In this document: positions 1 to 28,863 of the stretch, one piece after another
How positions within the stretch are numbered: position 1 is the stretch's first letter
How the letters are laid out: each line of letters starts with the position of its first letter
Assembly (NCBI GenBank): GCA_015487015.1
Contig: WFQP01000118.1
Span: 1-40,723 of the forward strand
Source of the DNA: Thiomicrorhabdus sp.
GTDB lineage: Bacteria > Pseudomonadota > Gammaproteobacteria > Thiomicrospirales > Thiomicrospiraceae
Reading direction: 5' to 3'
Length of the DNA: 40,723 bases
The notes under the pieces: model-generated
Told to the model about the DNA's origin: nothing
Database searches by the model: none
The model's input: only the letters and a program-made list of their open reading frames with translations
Program-made: the position numbers and the translations under genes

Positions 1-439
1 ATAAGAGACAGATATTGACAACGACAACGCTCCGAAGAAGTTCATTTTGCCAACGCACAGGTTTCAAACCGATAGGGAGCTTTTGTTTCAAGCGATGCAT
101 AATGGTTAAAATCAGAGCATCATCATTAAGATCAACTAAACAAACATAGTGAATTGGCTTATCACCTACTTTCCCTTCTGCCCAACGGTATAAAAAAGTA
201 TCTTTATACTTCCACGCTAAATCTGAATAAAACTCTTTTTTAACTTTTGCATTAGGATGGGTGTAGTCTTTTACCTCAACAAACAGCCAATCATGTTCAC
301 GCTCCACAATAAAATCAACGGATTTCATACAATGAGTCAATCCATGATAATTCGGTGATGCATTATCTACTTCATCAAACTTAAACGCTTGAATGGCATT
401 TGAAAAATCAAATTCAAGCTCCCCCTCCGTTAAAACCAT
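1..439 (-). CDS. PD-(D/E)XK nuclease-like protein, partial (C-terminus beyond window)
   Basis: This is an open frame of 146 codons read from an ATG at 439 and cut off by the window edge. It starts 3 nt after the stop of the ATPase gene, and a GGGAG sequence at the end of that gene can serve as its ribosome binding site, so the two are almost certainly one operon. Around residues 41-58 there is an aspartate (D42, in VDFIVE) followed 13 residues later by E-V-K (E55, K57, in LFVEVKDY). This is the D-(x)n-ExK pattern of PD-(D/E)XK nucleases, set between predicted beta strands. The family assignment rests on this short motif only, so a nuclease role is inference. It would be the effector partner of the upstream ATPase. 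The rest of the protein is not visible. Confidence 0.7.
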   Translation of the reverse strand, partial: MVLTEGELEFDFSNAIQAFKFDEVDNASPNYHGLTHCMKSVDFIVEREHDWLFVEVKDYTHPNAKVKKEFYSDLAWKYKDTFLYRWAEGKVGDKPIHYVCLVDLNDDALILTIMHRLKQKLPIGLKPVRWQNELLRSVVVVNICLL

Positions 440-442
440 GCC

Positions 443-1486
443 TTAACTCCCACCCATGGAACGTGTAATCTCTCGATCCACCAAATCCCCAAACGTTTCA
501 TCAATCGCATTGGGGCTAATATCTAAATAATGATCAGTGCTGTTTACCACAATTTCAGCACTTGATTCATCGCGCGAAAAAGCATGGTATTTAACGCTGT
601 CCTTTTTTTCTGTTTGTAGATCTAACTCTTTAAGAATGACATAATCATGCGTCGATAAAAACACCTGAACGCCCATTCGTTGTAATTCAATTAAAATTGA
701 AATAACGGTCTTCATTAAGCGAGGGTTTAAATTGGTTTCAGGCTCATCCCAACAAAGTATTGATCCTTTCAGCAACGTTCCGTTCTGAATTAAAACCCAA
801 AGAAGCGCCAGCTTACGAATGCCTTCGGCTAATAACGTAAATTCAAGCTCTCCTTGTTTGTTTTTAAGAAAAAACTCCTCATTTTTGGTAATCACCTTAC
901 CCTCCATCGCTTCTTGCAACAGAGTTAGTATTTTCTTTCTCTCTTTAAGGGGTTGTCCTTTTAACGGGGGGATAAAAACACGGTCAATAATATCAGAATA
1001 GACCTCTTCAAAATGAATATGGCGCTGAGAATACAGTGCACGAAACCCCGGTGCATTTGCCATCATGTCTTTTACGGGAATATAAACTGAGTCCAACGGC
1101 ATTTCCACCCAACGTTTAGGCGATCCTGAGAGCGTTGCTTTATTAGCCTCTTTAGTATGATTCGTCATCGAAAGACGTACTTTAAGCGCTTCTGGCTCAT
1201 TACCTTTTACATTATTTTCTCGCACCCACTCAATAAACCCTTTGCTGCTTTTACTAGAGCGCTTTACCAAACGCCCTATCTGCTCTTGAGAGGGTAAAAA
1301 AACTTTATTCACTTTTTCAGCAAGCCCTTTTTTACTCCGAGTAATATCACTCGCCGCGTAAATCAGCTTTAATATATGAGTTTTACCTGTGCCATTCGCA
1401 CCCACAAAAATATTTATTCCAGGTGAAAAATACATTTCAAGCTGATCAAACGCCGTAAAATTTTTTATTTTGAGTGACTTATACAT
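443..1486 (-). CDS. AAA/ABC-type ATPase (AAA_15/AAA_21-like), probable defence ATPase
   Basis: This 347-residue ATPase is of the SMC/RecF/OLD type. It has a Walker A at residues 29-36 (GANGTGKT), a signature-like segment LAEGIRKL near 219-226, a Walker B with catalytic glutamate at 243-248 (ILCWDE, followed by PETNLNP), and a switch histidine in STHDY at 278-282. The start at 1486 is supported by a perfect AGGAGG 5 nt upstream. No nuclease domain is fused to it. The gene immediately downstream carries a PD-(D/E)XK-like motif, so the pair resembles the ATPase-plus-nuclease cassettes common in bacterial defence islands, where the ATPase senses or assembles and the partner cuts. It is divergent from the retron. 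The ATPase fold is clear; the defence role is inferred from partner and context. Confidence 0.85.
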   Translation of the reverse strand: MYKSLKIKNFTAFDQLEMYFSPGINIFVGANGTGKTHILKLIYAASDITRSKKGLAEKVNKVFLPSQEQIGRLVKRSSKSSKGFIEWVRENNVKGNEPEALKVRLSMTNHTKEANKATLSGSPKRWVEMPLDSVYIPVKDMMANAPGFRALYSQRHIHFEEVYSDIIDRVFIPPLKGQPLKERKKILTLLQEAMEGKVITKNEEFFLKNKQGELEFTLLAEGIRKLALLWVLIQNGTLLKGSILCWDEPETNLNPRLMKTVISILIELQRMGVQVFLSTHDYVILKELDLQTEKKDSVKYHAFSRDESSAEIVVNSTDHYLDISPNAIDETFGDLVDREITRSMGGS

Positions 1487-1694
1487 CCATGCCTCCTAAG
1501 TAATAGCCCCATTTTAGTTTAAATTGATTATTGGGTTTTAAATTTTCATTTTTTATTTGAAAATCGATTTTTTTAGAGTCAAGGAAAATGATGCAATCTC
1601 CGTAGGCAAAGCTCAAAAGCCATTTTTTTCGCATCCGTGAGAGGCAAGTTTGACGCTTAACCCACTGCCCGTGTGAGTTTTGCAAGAGCCTCAT
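1479..1694 (-). CDS. Small ORF overlapping the ATPase start, doubtful
   Basis: This is a 71-codon frame whose last codons overlap the ATPase start (ATGTATAA arrangement), which would suit translational coupling. The predicted product is basic and has no recognised domain. No ribosome binding site is visible in front of the ATG at 1694, and a candidate minus-strand promoter (1696-1723) would start transcription at or after that ATG. The stretch may therefore be only the 5' leader of the ATPase mRNA, or a shorter ORF beginning inside it. It is listed because it fills the space between the ATPase and the retron, not because coding is proven. Confidence 0.3.
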   Translation of the reverse strand: MRLLQNSHGQWVKRQTCLSRMRKKWLLSFAYGDCIIFLDSKKIDFQIKNENLKPNNQFKLKWGYYLGGMDV

Positions 1695-1695
1695 T

Positions 1696-1723
1696 AAATT
1701 ACTTTAAATTGAATCCCCTGCAA
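1696..1723 (-). promoter_or_regulatory. Candidate promoter of the ATPase-nuclease operon
   Basis: On the minus strand TTGCAG (1723-1718) and TAATTT (1701-1696) are separated by 16 nt. The match to sigma70 is moderate. The elements are interleaved with those of the retron promoter on the other strand (1709-1737), so the two transcription units would compete for polymerase or share regulation. Confidence 0.35.
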
Positions 1724-1737
1724 AACATTGGTATATT
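1709..1737 (+). promoter_or_regulatory. Retron promoter (sigma70-like)
   Basis: TTGAAT (1709-1714) and TATATT (1732-1737) are separated by exactly 17 nt. A start 6-7 nt after the -10 falls at 1743-1744, which is the first base of the a1 arm of the retron RNA. The agreement between the promoter geometry and the independently found RNA end supports both. Confidence 0.7.
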
Positions 1738-1742
1738 CGTTG

Positions 1743-1876
1743 GTGGTTTATGGGCAGATTTTGGATCGCGTATCGCGATCAGTGAAAAAAATATCCGTTT
1801 GGATTGCCCTTAACAATGACGCTGTTGCAGATTCTTGACAGTCTCATTGCAGTGCGTAAGAGTGCCCGTAAGCCAC
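1743..1876 (+). ncRNA. Retron msr-msd RNA (Ec67/Eco2-like)
   Basis: This is the template-primer RNA for the adjacent retron reverse transcriptase. Arms a1 (1743-1756) and a2 (1863-1876) form a 14-bp stem with two G-U pairs and no mismatch. Right after a1 is G1757, the expected branching guanosine that would carry the 2'-5' bond. The msr holds a perfect 7-bp hairpin with a TAT loop (1764-1770/1774-1780) and a 4-bp hairpin (1793-1796/1801-1804). The msd is a long interrupted stem: 1809-1812/1857-1860, 1814-1819/1844-1849, 1822-1825/1838-1841. The order of elements, the GGCAGATTT context after a1, and the CAGTG after hairpin 1 match retron Ec67 as I remember its sequence. It ends 23 nt before the RT start codon. 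Structure was paired by eye, not folded. Confidence 0.88.
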
Positions 1877-1899
1877 ATTCAAGGATAGCTTATAAAATA

Positions 1900-3660
1900 A
1901 TGGACAAACTAAAAGCTCTTAAACAAGTTACCACAAAATCTCAACTCGCGGCATTATTAGGGGTAAAGCCTCAGCTTTTGACTCATGTTCTATATATATT
2001 ACAGCCAAAAACTCAATACAAACAATTCACAATACCCAAAAAAAATGGAGGTATTCGTACTATCTTCGCCCCATCTGAACGGTTAAAAAGCCTACAATCA
2101 AGCCTGTCTAACTTATTACTAGATTGTATTGATGTCATAAACAAAATCAATCAAAAAAAATACACTTATAAACACGCTTTGTCACATGGCTTTGTACGAG
2201 AAGCCTCTATCATGACCAACGCGGTGATGCACTTGAACCAAAAAAATGTGCTTAACATTGATTTAAAAGATTTTTTTGATAGTTTTAACTTTGGTCGCGT
2301 TAGAGGCTTTTTTATCAAAAATAATCATTTCAAATTAGATCCTAATATTGCAACAGTCATTGCACAAATTGCCTGTTATGACAACAAACTCCCGCAAGGT
2401 AGCCCATGCTCACCAGTTATTACCAACCTAATAACCCACTCGTTAGACATTAAGCTTGCATCACTAGCTAGAAAGCACTCTTGCATATATTCAAGATACG
2501 CTGATGATATGACCTTCTCTACACGCAAGTTGGTATTTCCTCCACAAATTATGCAACAGAAAGACGGTAAATTTATTACAGGAAAAAAGCTTACAAATGA
2601 AATAAAGCGAGCAGGTTTTTTTATAAATAATGAAAAAACACGCATTCAGTTCAAAGATTCCAGACAGGATGTAACAGGCTTAGTTGTTAACAAAAAACCC
2701 AATGTAAAAAAAGAATATTGGCGAACAGTAAAATCTCAGTGCCATAGTTTATTTCATACTGGCACTTTTATTAAAAAAACAGATGAAGGTGATGTTAATG
2801 GTAATATTAATGAGCTAGAAGGCCAGTTAAACTTTATCGATCAGGTTGATCGTTTTAATCGTTTGCGAAAAAAACCACCATTAAACCCTAAATACCAACA
2901 TGCAAAATATGGCATTAATAAAACTCCTTTACTCAGTGGCAGAGAAAAAACTTTTAGTAAATTCTTATATTATCGCTGGTTTTACGCCAATACCAAACCA
3001 ACCATACTTTGTGAAGGAAAAACCGATAATATTTACCTGAAATCTGCAATTAAAGTATTGGGAGAAAACTACCCGAACCTTGCTCGTGCTGAAACTAAAG
3101 ATAGTACCTATAAACTACTCATCCGCTTTATCGAGTATTCGAAGCGCACACGATTTTTATTAGGATTAGATGGTGGAACGTCATACCTAACCTATTTTAT
3201 ACAGGAGTTTGATAACCACTATAAGTTTTATAAAGCCTCAAAACCTCAATACCCCGTGATTATCGTGTTAGATAATGACTCAGGGTTTTCAGGTACCAGA
3301 AATCAACTTAAAAAAATTGATTCGGTAATGGTACACCCGACTACATTGACAAAAAGTGATTATCCTAATGCTGATTTCATTTATGTAATTCACAATCTCT
3401 ATGTTGTACTAACACCATTAGGCTCAAAAAATAAGAATACCGATATAGAGTATCTCTTTGATAAAAAAACACGGCTAACACAGCACAATGGCAAGTGTTT
3501 TAATACCGCTAATAAACGAGATGATAAAACCGACTTAAGCAAAGAAGCCTTTGCGAATCACATTATTAAAGCACAAAAAAATTCTATTGATTTTAACGGT
3601 TTAAAACCACTGTTAGACCGCATTGTTGCCGCCATGACACATTACGATTCAATTAAGTAA
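1900..3660 (+). CDS. Retron reverse transcriptase fused to TOPRIM domain (Ec67/Eco2 type)
   Basis: This 586-residue protein makes msDNA from the RNA encoded just upstream. Retron RT hallmarks are present: NAVMH (107-111, the NAxxH motif of region X), LNIDLKDFFDS (118-128), QGSPCSP (166-172), the catalytic YADD (200-203) and the VTG triad (258-260). The C-terminal part carries a TOPRIM fold with the glutamate motif CEGKTD (E372) and VLDND (D458, D460). The TOPRIM part is likely the toxic nuclease effector restrained by msDNA, as proposed for RT-TOPRIM retrons (often listed as type I-C). The frame stays open back to a TTG at 1804, but that part is the msd of the RNA, and starting at ATG 1900 gives the length I recall for the Ec67 RT. 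An AAGGA lies 14 nt before it, longer than ideal. Confidence 0.93.
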   Translation: MDKLKALKQVTTKSQLAALLGVKPQLLTHVLYILQPKTQYKQFTIPKKNGGIRTIFAPSERLKSLQSSLSNLLLDCIDVINKINQKKYTYKHALSHGFVREASIMTNAVMHLNQKNVLNIDLKDFFDSFNFGRVRGFFIKNNHFKLDPNIATVIAQIACYDNKLPQGSPCSPVITNLITHSLDIKLASLARKHSCIYSRYADDMTFSTRKLVFPPQIMQQKDGKFITGKKLTNEIKRAGFFINNEKTRIQFKDSRQDVTGLVVNKKPNVKKEYWRTVKSQCHSLFHTGTFIKKTDEGDVNGNINELEGQLNFIDQVDRFNRLRKKPPLNPKYQHAKYGINKTPLLSGREKTFSKFLYYRWFYANTKPTILCEGKTDNIYLKSAIKVLGENYPNLARAETKDSTYKLLIRFIEYSKRTRFLLGLDGGTSYLTYFIQEFDNHYKFYKASKPQYPVIIVLDNDSGFSGTRNQLKKIDSVMVHPTTLTKSDYPNADFIYVIHNLYVVLTPLGSKNKNTDIEYLFDKKTRLTQHNGKCFNTANKRDDKTDLSKEAFANHIIKAQKNSIDFNGLKPLLDRIVAAMTHYDSIK

Positions 3661-4006
3661 TTTACTCTGCCCTTAAAGCAAGCAACACATCAAAACAATC
3701 TGGAGTCCATTAGGAAGATCGCCGTCCATCATCCATAACAAGCCTTTACCAAGCTTGATTTTGATTTACCAAAATTCTAAATTGTGCCTCCCGTTTATTT
3801 CGCACTTTAACGCGAAAAACTCTCTTGGCATTGTTTGCTTTCTGAGGCGGCTTTAAGTAACTCTTACTCACTGTTTTTTCTTCTCAACATAAGTGGCGTT
3901 ATGAGTAAATAATTTAGTTTTTTTATTCAATAGGAATGCCTTAAAAAAAACTATCCAGAAAAAACATATCACCCTAAAACATAAAAACAGCTTATCTAAA
4001 TGAGTC

Positions 4007-4065
4007 TTACCCAATATTTCTTTTTTTAATTTATAATGACTCCTTTCGTAAACTTAATTGGGTAA
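4007..4065 (+). promoter_or_regulatory. Candidate hslU promoter flanked by a 9-bp inverted repeat
   Basis: A perfect TATAAT lies at 4032-4037. The best -35 (TTACCC at 4007-4012, 19-nt spacer) is weak. A 9-bp inverted repeat, TTACCCAAT (4007-4015) and ATTGGGTAA (4057-4065), has its left arm on the -35 and its right arm just after the expected transcription start. This could be a pair of operator half-sites about five helical turns apart. No sigma32-like CTTGAA/CCCCAT pair was found, although hslU is heat-inducible in E. coli. Confidence 0.35.
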
Positions 4066-4099
4066 TTTCAAGCCTTTTAAATAGGTTTAAAATTTTTCT

Positions 4100-4107
4100 C
4101 CCCCCCC
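4100..4107. repeat. C8 homopolymer in the hslU leader
   Basis: Eight consecutive cytosines lie about 10 nt before the ribosome binding site region of hslU. Runs this long are prone to slippage and could alter leader spacing. Confidence 0.9.
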
Positions 4108-4133
4108 TATGTCATGAAGGAAACCCGTAACAA

Positions 4134-5453
4134 ATGATGACCCCTAAAGAAATTGTGCACAGCTTAGATTCACACATTGTAGGCCAAGCCGATGCAAAGC
4201 GTGCCGTTGCCATTGCCTTGCGTAATCGCTGGCGTCGTAATCAACTGTCTGATGAATTGCGTCATGAAGTGACCCCCAAAAACATTTTAATGATTGGGCC
4301 AACAGGGGTTGGAAAAACCGAAATTGCGCGCCGCTTAGCTAAACTGGCGAATGCACCCTTTTTAAAAATTGAGGCCACTAAGTTTACCGAAGTGGGTTAT
4401 GTGGGACGTGATGTGGACTCTATTATTAGAGACCTAATGGAAAATGCCATGAAGATCACGCGTGAACAAGCGATGAAAGGCCTGCAACGCAAAGCCGAGG
4501 ATGCGGCCGAAGAGCGTATTTTAGATATTTTACTCCCCCCTGCTCGCGGTCGCGAAGAGGAGAGCCATGACAATATGGCCGATACGCGCCAAAAGTTTCG
4601 TAAAAAACTGCGTGAAGGTCAGTTGGACGATAAAGAGGTTGAGCTGGATTTAAATGCCGCACCCAAACAAGTTGAGATTATGGCCGCCCCCGGTATGGAG
4701 GAGATGACTCAACAACTGCAAGGCATGTTTGAAGGTTTAGGCCAAAACAAAAAAGAGAAGCGTAAACTGACCATTAAAAAAGCGCTCAAAGCCCTCACTG
4801 AAGAGGAAGCGCAAAAGCTTATTAATCAAGACGATATAAAAGCCCAAGCGATTGAGAGTGTTGAACAAAACGGCATTGTCTTTATTGATGAAATTGATAA
4901 GGTCGCCAAACGCCAAGATGCGGGCGGTGGCGATGTTTCTCGTGAAGGGGTACAACGTGATTTACTGCCTTTAATTGAAGGGAGCACCGTCAGCACTAAA
5001 TACGGCATGATCAAAACCGATCATATTCTGTTTATCGCCTCAGGTGCGTTTCACCTGTCTAAACCGTCAGATCTTATTCCTGAACTACAAGGGCGTTTGC
5101 CAATTCGCGTTGAGTTGCAATCGCTACGTGTTAAAGATTTTGTGCGCATCTTAACCGAACCCACGGCTTCCCTGACGCAACAAGCCGTCGCCCTAATGAA
5201 AACCGAAGGGGTTGACTTGGTCTTTACCAATGAAGGCATTCAGCGTTTGGCGGAGATTGCTTTCCAAGTAAATGAAGGCACTGAAAACATTGGGGCACGT
5301 CGTTTACACACGGTATTAGAACGTTTGTTGGAAGAGGTCTCTTTTGACGCGCCTAGTTTGGCTGGATCAACCTTTGAAGTGACCCAACAGTTTGTTGAAG
5401 AGCGTTTGGGTGAGCTCGCTGTAGATCAAGACCTTTCACAATATATTTTATAA
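4134..5453 (+). CDS. hslU: ATP-dependent protease ATPase subunit HslU
   Basis: HslU (ClpY) is the cytoplasmic AAA+ unfoldase that feeds proteins into the HslV peptidase. At 439 residues it is of normal length and intact. Walker A is at 55-62 (GPTGVGKT), the pore loop GYVG at 88-91, the inserted I-domain at about 110-240, Walker B at 248-253 (IVFIDE), the sensor/arginine-finger region with NIGARRL follows, and the C-terminus ends SQYIL, the tail that docks in HslV. Two ATGs in tandem (4134 and 4137) are both possible starts, with AAGGA at 4117-4121. hslV normally precedes this gene in one operon but is missing here, so either it lies elsewhere or the retron island separates the two. It heads a run with the DUF971 and ubi genes. 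Confidence 0.97.
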
Positions 5454-28440: not shown

Positions 28441-28797
28441 TTATCGCTTAATAGGTCTCACTGGACCTTTACGAGTACGTGCATTAGTTTTGGTACGTTG
28501 CCCTCTAAGAGGCAAACTACGACGGTGACGAATTCCTCGGTAGCACCCCATGTCCATTAATCGCTTAATGTTCATAGATACTTCACGACGAAGATCACCT
28601 TCTATTTTAAATTTTGTTACTTCTGAACGAAGTGATTCTAACTGCTCTTCAGTTAGTTCTCGAACTTTGGTTGAAGGTTCCAAGTTAGCCGAAGCACAAA
28701 TGGCTTTTGCTGTAGTTGAACCAACTCCGTAGATCGAAGTCAAGCCGATAACAATATGTTTGTTAACGGGAATGTTTACGCCGGCAATACGTGCCAT
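28441..28797 (-). CDS. rpsM: 30S ribosomal protein S13
   Basis: S13 is in the 30S head and contacts the 50S subunit and P-site tRNA. The 118 residues start [19 protein letters not shown], have the helix-two-turn-helix segment, and end with the basic [18 protein letters not shown]. It is the first gene of the alpha operon. A GGGAGC precedes the ATG. Confidence 0.99.
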
Positions 28798-28834
28798 AGT
28801 GCGCTCCCTTTAATCCATCTACTGAAAAGCGAGG

Positions 28835-28863
28835 ATTATACCTGCCTTTCACATAAAATACTA
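28835..28863 (-). promoter_or_regulatory. Candidate alpha-operon promoter
   Basis: On the minus strand TAGTAT and a perfect TATAAT are separated by 17 nt, in the 85-nt gap between secY and rpsM. The predicted leader is only about 30 nt, too short for an E. coli-type S4 pseudoknot before rpsM. Confidence 0.5.

What the first reader, a model, noticed from the sequence alone, without database searches (positions are those of the whole stretch)
1804..1899. The apparent N-terminus of the RT gene is the retron msd, not protein
The RT frame is open back to a TTG at 1804, adding 32 codons. That stretch coincides with the msd stem and the a2 arm, and starting at ATG 1900 leaves 586 residues, the size I recall for the Ec67 RT. 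Automatic pipelines would likely call the longer protein and so mask the RNA gene.
Basis: partly seen in the sequence, partly recalled or inferred. Interest (0 to 1): 0.6.

Follow-up and report, generated by a model that had tools for sequence, protein, structure and literature searches.

The report
Retron RNA misread as protein start
The first 32 codons of this reverse-transcriptase reading frame are really the RNA template and leader of an Ec67-type anti-phage retron, and the same kind of false extension stands in public records of the prototype, Ec67, itself.

Summary
The finding holds. Window 1804-1899 is open in frame with a 586-codon RT-Toprim gene (1900-3660) but is not protein: it is most of the msd template (1793-1861 by homology to Eco2), the a2 arm (1863-1876) and a 23-nt leader. 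Evidence: a1/a2 pairing unbroken over its inner 12 pairs in 32 distinct relatives, six pairs with compensatory changes; a covariance model finds the RNA 5' of the RT in 96 of 96 loci, 63 not used to build it; the RT frame is open no more often than the other two (9 of 65 against 14 and 11); frame-breaking length changes in 6 of 6 nearest relatives; two retrons 97% alike over 5.4 kb whose only indel, 1 bp in the leader, puts three stops in the extension frame. The forecast about pipelines is true of the prototype: 13 of 13 RefSeq copies of Ec67 carry 626- or 646-aa proteins that swallow its msd. It failed in 4 of 4 other annotated relatives with a start inside the RNA. The element is an ordinary type I-C retron.

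The parts
1709..1737 (+). Promoter-like site TTGAAT-N17-TATATT; would start the RNA near 1743-1745, i.e. at a1
   Evidence: 9 of 12 matches, TG before the second hexamer; 6 sites found in 1480-4140 against a mean of 9.5 in shuffles, so the match alone is not significant; its position is the argument
1743..1756 (+). a1 arm of the ncRNA
   Evidence: pairs with 1863-1876; the inner 12 pairs are formed in all 32 distinct sequences; the two outermost are unpaired in 22 and 17 of 32
1757..1757 (+). Branching G (priming 2'-OH), in CAGA context as in Eco2
   Evidence: Homology to rG15 of Eco2 (PMC12405507; CAGA in PMC6868368); alignments
1764..1780 (+). msr stem-loop, 7 bp with a 3-nt loop
   Evidence: 98.2% of cells paired, two pairs with changes on both sides
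1793..1861 (+). msd template, 69 nt by homology (Eco2: nt 52-118, 67 nt)
   Evidence: Landmarks from PMC12405507 checked on the Ec67 sequence, transferred by alignment; ends not measured
1793..1804 (+). Possible small hairpin at the start of the msd; the T of TTG 1804 would be its last paired base
   Evidence: 95.3% of cells paired, no compensatory change; in the window's own minimum-energy fold but RNAalifold on the 33 sequences did not choose it
1814..1849 (+). Central msd hairpin (contains the in-frame ATG 1816)
   Evidence: minimum-energy structure; one covarying pair in a 13-sequence subset; DNA fold z only -1.72
1863..1876 (+). a2 arm of the ncRNA
1877..1899 (+). Untranslated leader with Shine-Dalgarno-like AAGGA at 1881-1885, 14 nt before the ATG
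   Evidence: Direct reading; a2-to-start gap is 6-57 nt in 88 loci
1900..3660 (+). RT-Toprim gene, 586 aa (YADD, NAxxH, VTG; Toprim E372, D376, D458, D460, E517)

Best explanation
The window holds a complete Ec67/Eco2-type (type I-C) retron. One transcript, probably started near 1743, carries the ncRNA (a1, branch G, msr, msd, a2) and then the RT-Toprim message, translated from ATG 1900. The RT binds the msr, primes from the 2'-OH of G1757 next to the a1/a2 duplex, and copies the template from about A1861 back to about A1793, giving an msDNA of about 69 nt that stays bound to the RT-Toprim. By analogy with Eco2 the complex is an autoinhibited trimer; when a phage nuclease attacks the msDNA the Toprim RNase is freed and infection aborts. 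The 32 codons before ATG 1900 are open by chance. Shown here: sequence homology, RNA structure conservation, no sign of coding constraint. Inferred from Eco2: msDNA ends, trimer, trigger, RNase action.
For: Protein: NF038237 763.7 bits over residues 36-614 of the long form; best PADLOC model RT-Toprim_I-C 3.9e-231 from residue 31; Eco2 chains 9lm3/9i2f 1e-145 from residue 34; the five best PDB fold matches of the model are Eco2 chains. RNA: a1/a2 inner 12 pairs unbroken in 32 distinct sequences, six with changes on both sides; covariation score of the whole structure 0.146 against 0.090 in shuffles (0 of 500) and 0.025-0.051 when slid; covariance model finds the RNA 5' of the RT in 96 of 96 sources at E <= 5.2e-5, 63 of them not in the training set. 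No coding: 9 of 65 open in the RT frame against 14 and 11; branch-G-to-ATG distance differs from the window's by -4, -4, -10, -14, -1 and +16 nt in the six nearest relatives, none a multiple of three; a2 lies in all three phases to the RT frame (42, 24, 22 of 88); L046/L047, 97.2% over 5384 columns, single 1-bp indel in the leader, three stops in L047's extension frame, RT open in both.
Against: With host-trained codons the extension is not distinguishable from coding: 21% of in-frame RT windows score as low, and only 23% of off-frame RT windows score as high. With RT-trained codons it scores below every RT window, but those windows are the training data. Three weaker PADLOC models of other retron types start inside the extension (RT_II-A at residue 15, RT_IX at 18, RT_III-A at 29). 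Nothing was measured in the host. Rfam has no match to the RNA. The long msd hairpin of Eco2 is not evident across this clade. AAGGA is 14 nt from the ATG, further than ideal.
Confidence: 0.95

Rival explanations
1. The extension is a real, lineage-specific N-terminus of the RT, started at TTG 1804 or ATG 1816.
For: The frame is open; ATG 1816 is an ordinary start; the host-trained codon score is not diagnostic.
Against: None of the 6 relatives at 66-75% identity keeps the frame; the NCBIfam model, the type I-C PADLOC models and the Eco2 chains do not cover it; its start codons sit inside a conserved RNA whose arms covary; model confidence is under 50 for residues 1-32 (weak evidence, as no other row of that alignment reaches these columns).
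Confidence: 0.03
2. Dual use: the RNA is a retron template and is also read by ribosomes now and then, giving a minor long RT or tuning how much RNA is left for reverse transcription.
For: In 20 of 88 loci a start codon inside the RNA is contiguous with the RT frame; in Ec67 the frame is open through the whole RNA.
Against: Openness is no commoner in the RT frame than in the other two; a2 is read in all three phases in different relatives; a review reports that Ec67 RT placed 5' of its msr-msd in yeast made more msDNA, so the RT works without translation through the msd (PMC6868368, passages).
Confidence: 0.04
3. The retron is a decayed copy that makes no msDNA.
For: Five other loci in the set carry RT frames that end early (L042, L043, L107, L116, L033), so decay happens.
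Against: The window's ORF is whole; of 16 functional residues of Eco2 compared, 12 are identical and four are changed (R70 to S, R184 to K, R332 to K, S513 to D); the ncRNA is canonical.
Confidence: 0.06

Closest known systems
Retron-Eco2 (Ec67), E. coli S10 (NZ_CP010229.1; PDB 9lm3, 9i2f, 9s1f)
   Same: 586-aa RT-Toprim fusion, 259 identical of 572 aligned residues; ncRNA of the same plan, model match E 8.5e-13; CAGA branch context; RT frame also open into the msd
   Different: The msd sequence differs and does not show Eco2's strong single hairpin; R70, R184, R332 and S513 of Eco2 are S67, K185, K336 and D515 here; Eco2's frame is open through the whole RNA, the window's for 38 codons
RT-Toprim retrons in MAGs titled Gammaproteobacteria (L038, L054), Kangiellaceae (L039), Zetaproteobacteria (L040) and Methylophilaceae (L042); 70-75% protein identity
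   Same: Near-identical msr and a1/a2, same ncRNA-RT order
   Different: A stop in the RT frame after 6-20 open codons upstream of the ATG; L042's RT frame ends after 60 codons
RT-Toprim retron on Shewanella baltica plasmid pSBP2_mcr4 (L031)
   Same: 60.5% protein identity, same ncRNA plan
   Different: In-frame stop after 8 open codons upstream; the record starts the CDS at the short ATG

Membership tests
Retron type I-C (RT-Toprim, Ec67/Eco2 family) | RT with YADD, NAxxH and VTG motifs | tested here: met
   YADD at 200, NAVMH at 107, VTG at 258 of the 586-aa protein
Retron type I-C (RT-Toprim, Ec67/Eco2 family) | C-terminal Toprim effector fused to the RT, with metal-binding acidic residues | tested here: met
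   Near-full-length family matches; Eco2 E374, D378, D460, D462, E515 are E372, D376, D458, D460, E517; S513 is D515. The published K562 did not fall on a lysine in my numbering of Eco2 and was not used
Retron type I-C (RT-Toprim, Ec67/Eco2 family) | ncRNA 5' of the RT: complementary a1/a2, branch G next to a1, msr stem-loop, msd before a2 | tested here: met
Retron type I-C (RT-Toprim, Ec67/Eco2 family) | msd folds as one long DNA hairpin | tested here: inconclusive
   Window msd DNA z -1.72; mean -0.50 over 33, 2 of 33 below -2; one covarying pair in a 13-sequence subset
Retron type I-C (RT-Toprim, Ec67/Eco2 family) | Makes 2',5'-branched msDNA | not testable with these tools
   Needs msDNA extraction
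Retron type I-C (RT-Toprim, Ec67/Eco2 family) | Anti-phage defence by RNase activity released when msDNA is cut | not testable with these tools
   Reported or proposed for Eco2 (PMC12405507); inferred here

The most novel reading that the evidence does not exclude
In retrons whose RT frame is open into the ncRNA (20 of 88 here, and the prototype Ec67), ribosomes sometimes start inside the msr-msd and make an N-terminally extended RT, so that translation and reverse transcription compete for the same RNA.
Probability: 0.04. Interest if true: 0.6.

Novelty: new member of a known kind. Interest (0 to 1): 0.35.

Why it matters
The retron is ordinary. The lesson about annotation is useful: about a quarter of the RT-Toprim retrons examined (20 of 88) have an in-frame start inside the ncRNA, and for the prototype Ec67 all 13 RefSeq E. 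coli copies found have the msd annotated as protein. An RT cloned from such a record would carry part or all of the RNA as an N-terminal fusion, and a search restricted to intergenic DNA would miss the RNA (both inference). My literature searches (open PMC subset only, listings) showed no title or abstract that reports this; I read passages or sections of four papers and none whole, so absence from print is not established.

Tried and rejected
Rfam: no match to the retron RNA at the gathering threshold over the whole window or at E <= 10 in 1650-1950. Viral contigs: one scan with the single RT protein, which reaches close relatives only, found none. Phage records: 42 with a match, one covering 80% of the RT or more; not pursued. 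Long msd hairpin as proof of msd: rejected, mostly not better than shuffled DNA. Codon usage: host-trained codons do not discriminate; RT-trained codons do, but the comparison windows are their training data. AlphaFold of the 618-aa form: low confidence for residues 1-32, but nothing else in the alignment covers them. I first took 4, then 11, annotated relatives as showing that pipelines choose the short start; the Ec67 records overturned that generalisation, and both are reported. The RT counts of L038/L042 are meaningless because L042's RT is frameshifted, and were not used. Rows set aside: one search kept the best 80 of 177 relatives; one search used the 65 relatives whose protein match starts at residue 1, of 87 (the other 22 start at residue 3-7); alignment A2 took the 33 sequences at 54% identity or more, window included, of 88 (L002 stood in my list without a measured identity and was left out; it is 43%). 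The 96 sources include identical or nearly identical RNAs (L035/L036/L139, L133/L137, L087/L088, L046/L047); the 11 annotated relatives include two such pairs (L133/L137, L035/L139). For the 22 loci not starting at residue 1, guessed the start codon by rule; phases do not depend on it, the gap and the 20-of-88 count do.

Full report
What is there. The longest ORF at the left end of the window runs 1804-3660 (+), TTG start, 618 aa; from ATG 1900 it is 586 aa. The frame is open for 38 codons upstream of 1900. The protein is an Ec67-type RT-Toprim: NF038237 (retron Ec67 family) 763.7 bits, cut-off 450, from residue 36 of the long form; best PADLOC model RT-Toprim_I-C 3.9e-231, from residue 31; the solved Eco2 chains 9lm3 and 9i2f at 1e-145, from residue 34; and the five best PDB fold matches of its AlphaFold model are Eco2 chains. 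The methionine coded at 1900 is residue 33. Other PADLOC type I-C models start at 33-46; three weaker models of other retron types start inside the extension (RT_II-A at 15, RT_IX at 18, RT_III-A at 29).

The RNA. 1735-1900 folds to -55 kcal/mol, z -4.0, none of 200 shuffles as good. The outer helix is a1 1743-1756 with a2 1863-1876. The Eco2 paper (PMC12405507; abstract, two of three parts of the Results, the Discussion and search passages seen) gives rG15 as branch point, a stem-loop at 20-42, and an msd of 67 bases. On the Ec67 sequence of E. coli S10, whose RT coordinates I took from a table passage of PMC8934634, these landmarks give msd = nt 52-118. Transferred to the window: branch G1757, msd template 1793-1861, 69 nt. 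A promoter-like TTGAAT-N17-TATATT at 1709-1737 would start the RNA at about a1; as a consensus match it is not significant by itself.

Conservation of the RNA. 33 upstream regions, the window's and those of RTs at 54% identity or more, were aligned. RNAalifold found the a1/a2 helix and the msr stem unprompted, but not the small hairpin at the start of the msd. Counted on 32 distinct rows, the inner 12 a1/a2 pairs are formed in every row, six of them with changes on both sides; the two outermost pairs are unpaired in 22 and 17 of 32. For the whole structure the covariation score is 0.146 against 0.090 in shuffles (0 of 500 reach it) and 0.025-0.051 when the partner is slid; of the five measures only the number of further pair types (67 of 500) is not beyond the shuffles. 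Related sequences can exceed such shuffles, so the slid control and the next test matter more. A covariance model built from these 33 finds the RNA on the RT's strand in 96 of 96 sources searched, 63 of them not in the training set, at E <= 5.2e-5; the best match elsewhere in the window is E 0.076, and matches to the opposite strand of the same RNAs reach E 0.006. The Ec67 locus itself matches at 8.5e-13.

Against the msd as a strong stem. Folding the msd DNA of the same 33 gave z -1.72 for the window, mean -0.50, and 2 of 33 below -2. A 13-sequence subset shows one covarying pair in a central stem (C-G 7, U-A 4, U-G 1, one gap). In this clade the msd is identified by its position between conserved flanks, not by a long hairpin.

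Is the extension protein? (a) In the 65 relatives whose match starts at residue 1, the 32 codons upstream are open in the RT frame in 9, and in the two other frames in 14 and 11; at 54% identity or more in 4, 3 and 5 of 32; at 66% or more in none of 6 in any frame. (b) The branch-G-to-ATG distance in the six nearest relatives differs from the window's by -4, -4, -10, -14, -1 and +16 nt. (c) a2 stands in all three phases to the RT frame: 42, 24 and 22 of 88; the conserved stretch before and in a2 is read as RKSARKP in the window but as CVGVP or CVRVP in some others. (d) L046 (Stutzerimonas stutzeri) and L047 (Pseudomonas indica) carry the same retron, 97.2% over 5384 columns with one gap: a 1-bp change in the leader, which puts three stops in L047's extension frame while both RTs stay open, with 20 differences in 608 residues. 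(e) By codon position, substitutions in the 96 nt upstream, pooled over L046/L051, L048/L049 and L048/L053, are 4, 10, 5; in the first 900 nt of the RT 62, 38, 208 (L048 is used twice). (f) Codon usage is equivocal: with host-trained codons 21% of in-frame RT windows score as low as the extension and 23% of off-frame windows as high; with RT-trained codons the extension is below every in-frame window, which are however the training data.

What pipelines do. In 11 annotated relatives the CDS starts 3' of a2 in all 11, including 4 (L133, L134, L136, L137; L133 and L137 near-duplicates) that have an in-frame start inside the RNA. The prototype is different. A BLAST of the Ec67 locus finds 13 E. 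coli genomes, of 5426, with at least 80% of it. In 13 of 13 the RefSeq CDS is longer than the 586-aa protein: 5 at 626 aa, whose ATG is ncRNA nt 50-52, at the msr/msd junction, and 8 at 646 aa, starting 10 nt upstream of the RNA and so covering all of it (start positions checked by script for S10 and 7 more; the other 5 by their coordinates). The protein described in the literature has 586 residues (PMC12405507; PMC6868368, passages). Across the 88 loci, 20 have a start codon inside the RNA contiguous with the RT frame, and 3 have no in-frame stop anywhere between the RNA's 5' end and the RT. How a pipeline annotates the window itself I could not see.

How it works. Shown here by sequence: a whole RT-Toprim gene with 12 of 16 compared functional residues of Eco2 identical, behind a conserved retron RNA. 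Inferred from Eco2: G1757 primes, the RT copies 1861 back to about 1793, the msDNA and RT-Toprim form an autoinhibited trimer, and attack on the msDNA by a phage nuclease frees the Toprim RNase. The extension plays no part in this.

Verdict. A new member of a known kind. The PADLOC web server already searches for msr-msd elements with covariance models (PMC9252829, passages), so a remedy exists.

Noticed in passing
window 2-1486 (-): Beside the retron, divergently oriented: an ATPase (443-1486) matching PADLOC HEC-02A and a second gene (2-442, cut by the contig end) matching HEC-02B, a candidate defence pair.
   Followed up: partly
window 3991-4134: DNA from 3991 on matches the region upstream of the next gene (hslU, named by recall) in same-genus genomes (L120, L121), where the other neighbour reads as dapF (also by recall); the defence genes therefore look inserted beside hslU. 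An HslV match lies on another contig of the same genome.
   Followed up: partly
L046 and L047: The same retron region, 97% alike over 5.4 kb, stands in Stutzerimonas stutzeri NT0128 and Pseudomonas indica NBRC 103045, which suggests recent transfer.
   Followed up: no
L042, L043, L107, L116, L033: RT frame ends early (60 to 504 codons after the match start) although the ncRNA is still found in each.
   Followed up: no
L138: A second Ec67-like retron in E. coli 13E0725, near a phage portal gene; its CDS ends early, at 500 aa.
   Followed up: no
window 28765-28856 (-): Alpha operon ribosome binding site (RF00140), 39.3 bits against a gathering score of 38.
   Followed up: no
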